Below the pieces are notes generated by a model. That model saw only the letters and a list, made by a program, of their open reading frames with translations, searched no databases and had not been told where the DNA came from. Of a DNA stretch of 52,080 nt, positions 34,741 through 38,207 are shown piece after piece. The translations under genes were made by a program, and so were the position numbers. The first letter of the stretch is position 1. Every line of letters begins with the position of its first letter. This DNA is from Nitrospinota bacterium (GTDB lineage: Bacteria; Nitrospinota_A; UBA7883). The stretch is taken from positions 1-52,080 of the forward strand of contig JAOUMU010000007.1 of the NCBI GenBank assembly GCA_029881335.1. Direction: 5' to 3'.

Positions 34741-34955
34741 ATAAACAAGTTGAATTATCGATCTGGAACATAAATAAGATTTAAATTGCAATTACCGCTG
34801 TAAAAACGTTACTCTATATTCCAAATGGCAAGTTGCTGGCAAGGATATTGCCGTGTGACATTATAGGCTGGGGAGATGTGGTGTTCCATGGCAGCGTGTT
34901 GTTTTTCTCAAAGAATTGGTTATTAAGCATTGGCGGGGTGGAAAGAGAAGTTAAT

Positions 34956-35393
34956 ATGATGAAGATCGATCCCGGTATCAGTGACGGCTCATTAAATCTA
35001 TTAAATCCGTGGAGAGCTCCGACCCGCAGAAGGGACGGATTTACATTAGTGGAATTGCTGATTACTAGTACAATCATCGCCATTCTGGCCGTGATAGCGG
35101 TACCCCAGTTCGCCGCGTATCGTTCCAGGGCCCTGTGCGGCAAGGCTATGTCGGACCTGACGAACCTTGCCATTTCCCAGGAGTCTTATTTTGTTTTCGC
35201 GCAGACATATGTTGCCGCTACTCAGAATCCAGATAACACCAGCAATATGCCGGGGCATATGTGGACTCCCGGAGTAACGCTCATCTCCTCCACAGCCACT
35301 AACGCATATTGGGAGGCGGTGACGGATCATGTCGCTTGCAACGATGGCCCATTCACATACAGTAGCGACAAGGGCGGTCTGCGGAGGAACTAA
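34956..35393 (+). CDS. Orphan type IV prepilin-like protein
   Basis: The 145-residue product from ATG 34956 has a 32-residue polar leader ending RRRDG, then FTLVELLITSTIIAILAVIAVPQFAAYRSRA. This is the class III prepilin signature with Glu at +5 and an N-terminal helix. The rest is a short, serine/threonine-rich globular part with two cysteines (ALCGKA, HVACNDG). Prepilin peptidase would cut after the glycine. No pilus assembly or type II secretion gene is nearby. Leaders of this length are unusual (usually 5-10 residues, longer in some pseudopilins). Confidence 0.75.
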   Translation: MMKIDPGISDGSLNLLNPWRAPTRRRDGFTLVELLITSTIIAILAVIAVPQFAAYRSRALCGKAMSDLTNLAISQESYFVFAQTYVAATQNPDNTSNMPGHMWTPGVTLISSTATNAYWEAVTDHVACNDGPFTYSSDKGGLRRN

Positions 35394-36042: not shown

Positions 36043-36303
36043 CTATTTTTCAGCAGGGCCGAATGGCCCGATCATCGGATTTGAAAAGGGTCCTTTGATG
36101 TCAGAGGACTTGACAGTGGCGCCCCCCAGCTTTTCCATGGCGGTCTGCTCTATCATGACACAATACAGGTTCTCCCATGGATCTATGGAAATCACGCCGA
36201 AAGAAGAATCAAGGTCTTCAAGCGACAGCCCGTACCTCTCGCACACGCTTTCGATAGAAGGTGTCCCTTCCTCCCAGGTGATTTCGTACAACAACCTTGC
36301 CAT
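36043..36303 (-). CDS. Small protein resembling the subtilase prodomain of its neighbour
   Basis: The 86-residue protein begins MARLLYEITWEEGTPSIES and ends KGPFSNPMIGPFGPAEK. I know no named family. By eye, FGVISIDPWENLYCVMIEQTAMEKL and GPFSNPMIG match the layout of the prodomain of the neighbouring subtilase (STYIVRGEVEKGDIDEL, then VGVFADPQIQ): two strands, a helix and a G-x-F-(S/A)-(N/D)-P-x-I turn. Chopped prodomain-like proteins often act as subtilisin inhibitors (I9/SPI). A GGGAG precedes the ATG; its own extended -10 promoter lies at 36334-36342. Confidence 0.6.
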   Translation of the reverse strand: MARLLYEITWEEGTPSIESVCERYGLSLEDLDSSFGVISIDPWENLYCVMIEQTAMEKLGGATVKSSDIKGPFSNPMIGPFGPAEK

Positions 36304-36333
36304 GTCTCTACTCCCGGATGCCTTGCCACCCTC

Positions 36334-36342
36334 ATTATACCA
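36334..36342 (-). promoter_or_regulatory. Extended -10 promoter of the small prodomain-like gene
   Basis: On the minus strand TGGTATAAT (36342-36334) is a perfect extended -10 (TG-N-TATAAT), 31 bases before the ATG. No good -35 is seen, as expected for this type. Confidence 0.5.
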
Positions 36343-36368
36343 CTCACGGCGTTGAAAATGGTATTGGG

Positions 36369-36412
36369 CAAGCCGCCGGGCCCGGAGATTTCTCCTAAGA
36401 TCCGGCGGCTTG
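36369..36412 (-). terminator. 11-bp hairpin between the subtilase and the small gene
   Basis: CAAGCCGCCGG (36369-36379) pairs perfectly with CCGGCGGCTTG (36402-36412) around an inner GGAGA/TCTCC stem. It follows the subtilase stop and could end its transcript or protect its 3' end, but no T-run follows, so an intrinsic terminator is not certain. Confidence 0.45.
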
Positions 36413-36430
36413 ACATGTACTAGTATGTTG

Positions 36431-38122
36431 TCACTTCTCCTCCCAACCGCCACTCTCCATCTTTCCCATGAGCCCCTTCAGGTATCCCAGCTGGAAAATG
36501 GCCTCAGGTGATGAATCCTCAATCACATAGCGCAAAGCTTCCCAGCTTGCGTCCTCCTCGCCAGGCGCCACTTCATCTTCGGCGTAGGGAAATCCGGCGC
36601 CCTCCATGCCAGCTGTGGAAAGTGGATTCGCAGGCCTGGGCAGAGGAGGCCGGCCCACTGGGAATTTGGGTAGAGGAGGGCGGGGAAACGGTGGCTTTAT
36701 TGGAAAACACAATTTTGGAAATCGTTCGCATAAGTCAAGCCTGGTCTTCGGAAAGAGTTTTTTGACGATCCCGCATCCATTGACCACACCATACCCATGC
36801 AGGTAGTCATATCCTGCCGATCCCAGATCCGTGGCCGTGCTGGTCAGAAGATTCCGAATGGCCGAAGGGGCTGTATTCGCCTGGGAGGGATTGTATGGCC
36901 TTGCGGACCGTACCGCCGCCACCACTCCTGATACCACGGGGCATGCGGCGGAAGTCCCTCCATCCGCCGCGTAGACCCCGGAGCCTTTGAAGTGTGTGTA
37001 TCCACAAATATCCGGCTTCATTATTGTCAGGCGGCCGGGCCCGATGGCTGAGTATCCAACGCGGGTTTTGGTGGTGTCCACTCCCGCCACGCAAAGCACT
37101 GAACTTGAGGAATTGGCGCCGTAAATTGATCTATCCGTCACATTTTGGCAGCGCCCATCCGGGCAATCCTTTCCGCAGTTTCCCGCTGCGAAAACTATGT
37201 CGGCCCCCAGTTTTTCAACTGTGGCCACCAGCTTGTTGAATGGATGGTTTGGATTGTCGCTATAGTTGCCCGGAGCGCCCACCGGCCAGTCCCAGCTAGG
37301 GTGGAACATCCCCCAGCTGTTGCTGATAACCATGGTCTGAGGCTTTCCGTATTTCAATCCCGCCTGTAGTATAGAGGAAAGATGCCCGTATGCCCTGATG
37401 GCGTCAGACAGAAAGCTGTCCATCAGCACGCCCCCTGGTGGCGCCAATAGCCCGTGCAGCAAGGCAATGTCCAAAATCGTCGCCTTCGGAGCTGCTATGC
37501 ACACGTCATATGCGCACATGGTCCCATGGCCCACCGGGGCGTTACCTGGCGTGACCACCGATGGATCCCAGGACCAGCTTCTGGCCGCGTCGAAGGATGG
37601 GGTTTTTCCCTTGCTGTTCAGGAAGGTCATGTTCACTCCTGTGTCCACCACGGCCACCATCACTCCAGAGCCGTCCATGCCCTTGGCGCGCATGCTATCG
37701 ACGCATAAAAGCTTTTCCACCAGCAGATGGTCTCCCACCGGCCCTGCGCCAGGGCAAACCTGCATTGATTGAATCTGAGGATCGGCGAAAACTCCAACAA
37801 GCTGGCCACTTTTTGCCGCCTCATTCGTTAATTCATCAATATCCCCTTTCTCCACTTCACCCCTGACAATGTAGGTTGACGCCTCCATGCTGGTGTCGAT
37901 CGAAAACGCCTCCGATGTGTCGTAAAGGTTGTTCGGGTCAAACTCAATCCGGGTCGTGCCAGGCAGGGCCACCGGCCCAAAGGATTCGTCATACTGCAAA
38001 AGTTTTAGCTCGGGAACCGCTTTTTTGTCCAGCCTTGGCGCCGCCTCGGACATCATTGCGGACATGTTGGATTCCAACTTCTTGTTGTGCGATAACTCGA
38101 TGATAACCCTGATTTTCCCCAC
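36431..38122 (-). CDS. Subtilisin-like serine protease (S8), no signal peptide
   Basis: The protein has 563 residues. Catalytic triad: Asp160 in VMVAVVDTGVN, His199 in VGHGTMC and Ser390 in GGTSAACPVVSG, with oxyanion Asn314 in FAAGNCG. Residues about 50-120 form a prodomain-like region ending VGVFADPQIQ. Extra cysteines appear around the catalytic domain. A proline-rich linker (PPFPRPPLPKFPVGRPPLPRP) at about 475-510 leads to an acidic tail. There is no signal peptide, so it is probably cytosolic unless exported otherwise. The GTG at 38122 follows GGAGG; a TTG at 38155 is less likely. Confidence 0.9.
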   Translation of the reverse strand: MGKIRVIIELSHNKKLESNMSAMMSEAAPRLDKKAVPELKLLQYDESFGPVALPGTTRIEFDPNNLYDTSEAFSIDTSMEASTYIVRGEVEKGDIDELTNEAAKSGQLVGVFADPQIQSMQVCPGAGPVGDHLLVEKLLCVDSMRAKGMDGSGVMVAVVDTGVNMTFLNSKGKTPSFDAARSWSWDPSVVTPGNAPVGHGTMCAYDVCIAAPKATILDIALLHGLLAPPGGVLMDSFLSDAIRAYGHLSSILQAGLKYGKPQTMVISNSWGMFHPSWDWPVGAPGNYSDNPNHPFNKLVATVEKLGADIVFAAGNCGKDCPDGRCQNVTDRSIYGANSSSSVLCVAGVDTTKTRVGYSAIGPGRLTIMKPDICGYTHFKGSGVYAADGGTSAACPVVSGVVAAVRSARPYNPSQANTAPSAIRNLLTSTATDLGSAGYDYLHGYGVVNGCGIVKKLFPKTRLDLCERFPKLCFPIKPPFPRPPLPKFPVGRPPLPRPANPLSTAGMEGAGFPYAEDEVAPGEEDASWEALRYVIEDSSPEAIFQLGYLKGLMGKMESGGWEEK

Positions 38123-38207
38123 GATTTCCTCCGTTTCAAGTTGGGCCTGTCTCAAGCGTCTCTGGCGAAATACCGCTGCGCCGCCGCGCCCTGGGAAAGG
38201 CGATATA

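What the first reader, a model, noticed from the sequence alone, without database searches (positions are those of the whole stretch)
36043..38122. Subtilase without signal peptide paired with a stand-alone prodomain-like small protein
The 86-residue protein has a strand-helix-strand and G-x-F-S-N-P-x-I end that looks like the prodomain part of the neighbouring 563-residue protease (G-V-F-A-D-P-Q-I). It has its own extended -10 promoter and a hairpin separates it from the protease gene. This can be a protease/inhibitor (immunity-like) pair, or a chaperone for folding in trans. A cytosolic subtilase needing an inhibitor would resemble a toxin/antidote or regulated-proteolysis system, which I have not seen described in this form.
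Basis: inference. Interest (0 to 1): 0.6.

Follow-up and report, generated by a model that had tools for sequence, protein, structure and literature searches.

The report
Protease with stand-alone prodomain-copy inhibitor
A bacterial protease that lacks an export signal sits beside a gene for a tiny protein that is a free-standing copy of the protease's own safety-catch domain, and this two-gene pair recurs in about ten bacterial and archaeal phyla, so it is probably a widespread, unnamed protease-plus-inhibitor system.

Summary
The 563-aa protein (36431-38122, minus) is an intact S8 subtilase (D160, H199, N315, S391) with its own N-terminal prodomain and no signal peptide. The 86-aa protein (36043-36303, minus) matches that prodomain full-length as a family (profile-profile P = 1.7e-10; reversed or catalytic controls P >= 0.009) and is predicted to have the same b-a-b-b-a-b fold. 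A scan keyed only on the subtilase brought in 80 relatives in about ten phyla. Sixty-nine carry the small gene, 68 of them within 700 bp, in either gene order; 10 of the 11 others are Nonomuraea and the last is cut by its contig end. In 351 Sphingomonadales genomes the same three hold both genes. No other neighbour recurs. The small protein ends in [FYW][SA][DN]Px-I-E-P-[FY]-G-P. Its spacing fits the helix-cap residue, P4 site and P1 site of the subtilisin prodomain, followed by Gly-Pro. Most likely it is a trans-acting, prodomain-derived inhibitor that holds a cytosolic subtilase in check. That function is inferred, not shown. No Pfam or NCBIfam model matches it. Functional precedents exist (PopC/PopD, ASP/ORF2, SUB1-ProM, POIA1), so it is a new variant of a known kind.

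The parts
36431..38122 (-). S8 subtilase gene (563 aa, GTG start), no signal peptide, catalytic D160/H199/S391 and oxyanion N315
   Evidence: PF00082 E=1e-24; triad and N315 in 83 of 83 relatives; AF2 pLDDT 82.7, top PDB match pro-subtilisin E 3whi
37763..38122 (-). N-terminal prodomain of the subtilase (residues 1-120), ending G-V-F-A-D114-P-Q-I-Q
   Evidence: AF2 secondary structure b-a-b-b-a-b over residues 3-113; D114 in 83 of 83; homologous to the small protein
36950..36952 (-). codon of the catalytic serine S391 (GTSAAC)
   Evidence: invariant in alignments A6 and A8 and in 83 of 83
36043..36303 (-). 86-aa stand-alone prodomain-like protein, proposed trans-acting inhibitor
   Evidence: family HMM and synteny; AF2 pLDDT 88.5, b-a-b-b-a-b; Foldseek ranks 1, 3, 5, 7, 10, 11 and 12 are prodomain-bearing subtilases EpiP and pro-subtilisin E, all at weak E-values
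36055..36093 (-). G-P-F-S-N75-P-M-I78-G-P-F81-G-P tail: proposed helix-cap (N75), P4 (I78), P1 (F81) and Gly-Pro after it
   Evidence: column statistics over 72 small proteins and 83 prodomains; BPN' propeptide Asp71 caps catalytic-domain helices (PMC6993865) and the prosegment is 77 residues
36369..36412 (-). hairpin between the two genes, perfect 11-bp stem, 22-nt loop
   Evidence: unique in the genome; no T-run, so not a standard intrinsic terminator
36334..36342 (-). extended -10-like element TGGTATAAT, 30 bp upstream of the small gene
   Evidence: a consensus match only, no -35 partner found
38128..38132 (-). Shine-Dalgarno GGAGG of the subtilase gene
   Evidence: read directly from the sequence

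Best explanation
The two genes form a protease/inhibitor module. The subtilase is made in the cytoplasm without a signal peptide and carries its own prodomain. The small protein is an ancient stand-alone copy of that prodomain. It binds the mature catalytic domain in trans: its four-stranded sheet packs on the catalytic-domain helices, which Asp/Asn75 caps, and its C-terminal tail Ile78-Gly-Pro-Phe81-Gly-Pro lies in the active-site groove as a product-like ligand (P4 Ile, P1 Phe). It thereby keeps the protease silent inside the producing cell until the inhibitor is removed, degraded, or left behind when the protease is released. Shown here: prodomain homology, predicted fold, conserved pairing, intact catalytic residues and absence of a signal peptide. 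Inferred: binding, inhibition, the tail's role, and regulation by inhibitor removal.
For: Family-level prodomain homology over the full length, with negative controls. Predicted b-a-b-b-a-b fold, with prodomain-bearing subtilases as the top PDB matches. In the 80 relatives found through the subtilase alone, 69 have the small gene, 68 of them within 700 bp, in both gene orders. Co-occurrence in Sphingomonadales: the same 3 of 351 genomes hold both. Small-protein and catalytic-domain distances correlate, r = 0.65, 0 of 2000 permutations as high. The cap-to-P4-to-P1 spacing (+3, +6) equals that of the BPN' prosegment: position 75 is D or N in 72 of 72, +3 is Ile in 65 of 72, +5 is Pro in 67, +6 is Phe or Tyr in 49, +7 is Gly in 54, +8 is Pro in 51. 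Catalytic residues are intact in 83 of 83. Distant pairs keep the arrangement, e.g. L099.
Against: No binding or inhibition was measured and no complex model could be made. Single-model Foldseek E-values are weak (0.06 at best, none under 0.001) because ferredoxin-like folds are common. No Pfam I9 or NCBIfam model matches. Ten Nonomuraea subtilases, and the more distant Sinorhizobium homologue, lack an adjacent small gene, so the inhibitor is dispensable in some lineages. Where the protease acts is unknown.
Confidence: 0.66

Rival explanations
1. External folding chaperone: the small protein mainly assists folding of the subtilase in trans (as ORF2 does for Aeromonas ASP), with inhibition only transient.
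For: Prodomains are foldases, the small protein has the prodomain fold, and ASP/ORF2 has the same gene arrangement (PMC5638518).
Against: The subtilase already has its own prodomain, unlike propeptide-deficient ASP. Subtilases without the small gene keep all catalytic residues. The tail ends in a conserved substrate-like IEP[FY]GP.
Confidence: 0.17
2. Toxin/antidote or immunity pair: the protease is deployed against competitors or kills the host cell when the antidote is lost; the small protein is the immunity or addiction partner.
For: Patchy distribution: 1 of 24 genomes in the window's phylum and 3 of 351 Sphingomonadales. One pair is on a Streptomyces plasmid near IS genes.
Against: Ten Nonomuraea loci keep the protease without the small gene. 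No secretion, toxin-delivery or defence gene recurs next to it. PADLOC gives only weak generic subtilase hits.
Confidence: 0.09
3. The small protein recognises substrate or acts as an adaptor, guiding the protease to targets rather than inhibiting it.
For: It is short, co-evolves with the protease, and its N-terminal half has drifted more than its tail.
Against: Its most conserved part is the stretch expected to occupy the active-site groove, which points to competition with substrate.
Confidence: 0.05

Closest known systems
PopC/PopD of Myxococcus xanthus (PMC6434023; PMC4320627)
   Same: Subtilisin-like protease without signal peptide (50.8 kDa, N-terminal part with no recognisable domain plus C-terminal subtilisin domain), and a partner that forms a complex with it, encoded just 3' of it (the two offsets given for popD put its start near +1437 from the popC start).
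   Different: Sequence relationship could not be tested (PopC and PopD sequences not held). Profile searches of 379 Myxococcota genomes found only 3 to 4 relatives. PopD has not, to my knowledge, been described as a prodomain homologue.
Aeromonas sobria ASP/ORF2 (PMC5638518)
   Same: Small gene just downstream of a subtilase gene; the C-terminal end of ORF2 lies at the catalytic site; ORF2 inhibits (IC50 84 nM) and is needed for maturation; conserved operon in five genera.
   Different: ASP is described as propeptide-deficient; here the protease has its own prodomain and the small protein is homologous to it. ASP is an extracellular enzyme. No PDB entry, ORF2 included, matched the small-protein profile.
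Stand-alone subtilisin propeptide-like inhibitors: POIA1, yeast proteinase B inhibitor, Arabidopsis SPI-1, TgMIC5, Plasmodium SUB1-ProM (PMC6993865)
   Same: Separate small protein with the b-a-b-b-a-b propeptide fold, an Asp/Asn cap residue and a C-terminal tail for the active site; SUB1-ProM also lies beside subtilase genes.
   Different: All are eukaryotic; this family is bacterial and archaeal, sits next to its cognate protease and matches no Pfam model.

Membership tests
Stand-alone propeptide-like inhibitors (MEROPS I9 type) | small separate protein with propeptide b-a-b-b-a-b fold | tested here: met
   AF2 pLDDT 88.5, E3-9 H17-24 E38-41 E46-52 H53-59 E69-73; subtilase prodomains lead the PDB list, at weak E-values
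Stand-alone propeptide-like inhibitors (MEROPS I9 type) | cap residue and C-terminal tail with propeptide spacing | tested here: met
   D/N75 in 72 of 72, Ile at +3 in 65, Phe/Tyr at +6 in 49
Stand-alone propeptide-like inhibitors (MEROPS I9 type) | matches the Pfam I9 model (not required: known members lack significant sequence similarity, PMC6993865) | tested here: not met
   no I9 hit in any of 51 members at E <= 1
Stand-alone propeptide-like inhibitors (MEROPS I9 type) | inhibits a subtilase | not testable with these tools
   needs an enzyme assay
PopC/PopD | subtilisin-like protease without signal peptide | tested here: met
   no hydrophobic N-terminus; PF00082
PopC/PopD | partner gene immediately 3' of the protease gene | tested here: met
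   36303 start, 127 bp after the subtilase stop; 63 loci with the small gene 3' on the same strand, 62 of them within 250 bp
PopC/PopD | sequence homology to PopC and PopD | not testable with these tools
   sequences not held; 379 unnamed Myxococcota genomes gave few relatives
PopC/PopD | inhibitor degraded on a signal, protease then secreted (FtsH-D, Oar) | not testable with these tools
   needs experiments
ASP/ORF2 | protease lacks its own propeptide | tested here: not met
   own prodomain residues 1-120
ASP/ORF2 | small protein homologous to ORF2 | tested here: inconclusive
   no ORF2 chain among matches of the profile against PDB sequences; fold not compared directly
Toxin-antitoxin pair | antidote always accompanies the toxin | tested here: not met
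   10 Nonomuraea loci without the small gene; 8 of those genomes have none at E <= 0.01

The most novel reading that the evidence does not exclude
A general regulated-release protease system across bacteria and archaea: a leaderless subtilase stored in the cytoplasm under a trans-acting copy of its own prodomain, then freed by loss of that copy and exported by a signal-peptide-independent route. This would generalise the PopC/PopD principle from one myxobacterium to about ten phyla.
Probability: 0.27. Interest if true: 0.75.

Novelty: new variant of a known kind. Interest (0 to 1): 0.55.

Why it matters
It gives an unannotated small-protein family a testable function and a named partner, and shows that the prodomain-turned-separate-inhibitor arrangement, known from eukaryotes, is widespread in bacteria and present in archaea. 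It also poses a clear question: why leaderless subtilases with PPC or peptidoglycan-binding tails in some members, usually a mark of extracellular proteins, need a second prodomain in trans.

Tried and rejected
Direct pairwise BLASTP of the two proteins: no signal. Pfam, NCBIfam and PADLOC on the small protein: nothing. Phages: only a chance hit; viral contigs: none. Close relatives inside the window's phylum: none in 23 other genomes. PopC membership: attempted through three Myxococcota searches, not resolvable. Third conserved gene: none found; the recurrent clusters are mostly the small protein itself, local synteny of Erythrobacter relatives, or common families. Hairpin as a repeat element: unique in the genome. 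Repeated local duplication of each prodomain: rejected, since small proteins resemble each other far more (mean score 121) than their own prodomain (41), and own and foreign prodomains score alike (41 and 41; shuffled 30).

Full report
What is there. On the minus strand, a 563-codon GTG-started gene (stop at 36431, start at 38122, good Shine-Dalgarno) is followed 127 bp later by an 86-codon ATG-started gene (36303 to 36043). The large protein is an S8 subtilase by Pfam (E = 1e-24), with D160, H199, N315 and S391 present in all 83 aligned relatives. No hydrophobic N-terminus is present. The small protein has no match in Pfam, NCBIfam or PADLOC, nor have the 50 other family members scanned with it against Pfam and NCBIfam.

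Is the resemblance real? A direct pairwise comparison shows nothing. Translated searches of plasmids first showed a Streptomyces and a Nonomuraea relative of the subtilase, each followed within 25 bp by a relative of the small protein. A genome-collection scan keyed only on subtilase motifs then gave 80 loci. An iterated HMM of the small protein found it in 69 of those 80, and in 72 of 84 loci when the window and the three plasmid-collection loci are counted. Of the 11 others, one contig (L029) ends 146 bp after the subtilase and holds the start of a small gene. The remaining ten are all Nonomuraea. Two of those genomes carry a second subtilase with the small gene beside it, and eight have no small protein at E <= 0.01. 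Organisms include Acidobacteriota, Nitrospirota, Chloroflexota, Bacteroidota, Gemmatimonadota, Planctomycetota, Cyanobacteriota, Myxococcota, Actinomycetota, Alpha- and Gammaproteobacteria, and Methanophagales and Methanosarcinales archaea (record titles).

The profile of 51 small proteins against 45 subtilase prodomains gives P = 1.7e-10, probability 96.9%, co-linear from end to end. Reversed-prodomain and catalytic-domain controls gave P between 0.009 and 0.98. AlphaFold2 predicts b-a-b-b-a-b for the small protein (pLDDT 88.5) and the same order within residues 3-113 of the subtilase. The closest PDB matches of the small protein are the prodomain-bearing subtilases EpiP and pro-subtilisin E, with the BPN' prosegment lower down. 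All have weak E-values, because ferredoxin-like folds are abundant.

Pairing. In 351 Sphingomonadales genomes the small protein and the subtilase occur in the same three genomes. Leaving out the one that seeded the search, the same two of 350 (chance 1.6e-5, my calculation). The first-look filter scores only a limited number of candidates per genome, so misses are possible. Distances of small proteins and catalytic domains correlate (r = 0.65, 0 of 2000 permutations); shared organism phylogeny contributes to this. The gene order is not fixed: downstream on the same strand in 63 loci, upstream in 8, and on the opposite strand in one. Five of the upstream cases are the members with PPC tails. 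No other neighbour recurs across distant hosts. The split between prodomain and small protein is ancient and single: small proteins resemble each other much more than their own prodomains, and own and foreign prodomains score alike.

How it probably works. In subtilisin BPN' the 77-residue prosegment caps catalytic-domain helices with Glu69 and Asp71 and lays its C-terminal tail in the active-site groove (PMC6993865; prosegment length). Here the equivalent Asp is invariant in 83 of 83 prodomains, and is Asp or Asn in 72 of 72 small proteins. Three residues on (P4) both families have Ile (79 of 83 and 65 of 72). At +5 the small proteins have Pro (67 of 72). At +6 (P1) they have Phe or Tyr in 49 of 72, then Gly (54) and Pro (51). 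So the small protein presents a substrate-like I-E-P-F with Gly-Pro after it, more uniform than the prodomain's own end. This points to a product-like, tight-binding inhibitor acting in trans. Binding, inhibition and the way the brake is released are inferred, not shown. The separate -10-like element and the hairpin between the genes would allow the inhibitor to be made independently, but both are sequence features only.

Compared with what is known. Functionally the nearest cases are PopC/PopD (leaderless subtilase, complex-forming partner encoded just 3', PMC6434023 and PMC4320627), ASP/ORF2 (adjacent inhibitor/chaperone, but for a propeptide-deficient protease, PMC5638518) and the eukaryotic stand-alone propeptide-like inhibitors (PMC6993865). 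Membership in PopC/PopD could not be tested, because those sequences are not held. ASP/ORF2 is not the same arrangement, since the protease here has its own prodomain. The literature library held no description of this bacterial family in the searches made, but most subscription papers are not in it.

Verdict. A real, conserved and previously unmodelled two-gene module; a new variant of a known kind; inhibitor function likely but untested.

Noticed in passing
window 36431-38122, residues C123, C316, C320, C325 of the subtilase: Four cysteines are invariant in all 83 subtilases (C123 just after the prodomain, and C-x3-C-x4-C at the oxyanion Asn: GNCGxDCPDGRC). They could form disulfides or a metal site; unexplained for a leaderless protein.
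   Followed up: partly
L102:3638-5089 and the following 75 codons: A more distant myxobacterial subtilase is followed directly by a very divergent small ORF of similar strand-helix pattern without the DPxIEP motif, then by an ORF that looks like a CHAT-domain/ATPase protein. It may extend the pairing to a further branch.
   Followed up: partly
L027, L028, L030, L032, L035: Members with the small gene upstream of the subtilase in archaea, Kuenenia and cyanobacteria all carry a C-terminal PPC domain, and L038 has a peptidoglycan-binding domain, which hints at action outside the cytoplasm despite the missing signal peptide.
   Followed up: partly
L046, L058, L062, L069, L070, L072, L074, L076, L082, L084: Ten Nonomuraea loci keep the subtilase with intact catalytic residues but have no small gene next to it; how these proteases are controlled is unknown.
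   Followed up: partly
window 34833-35393: An ORF with a type IV pilin-like N-terminus (GFTLVELLITSTIIAILAVIAVPQF) lies just before the rubrerythrin-like gene.
   Followed up: no
G000:C15:274-1068 (L086): A second, unrelated subtilase in the same genome, near a contig end; no match to this subfamily (E = 0.03).
   Followed up: partly
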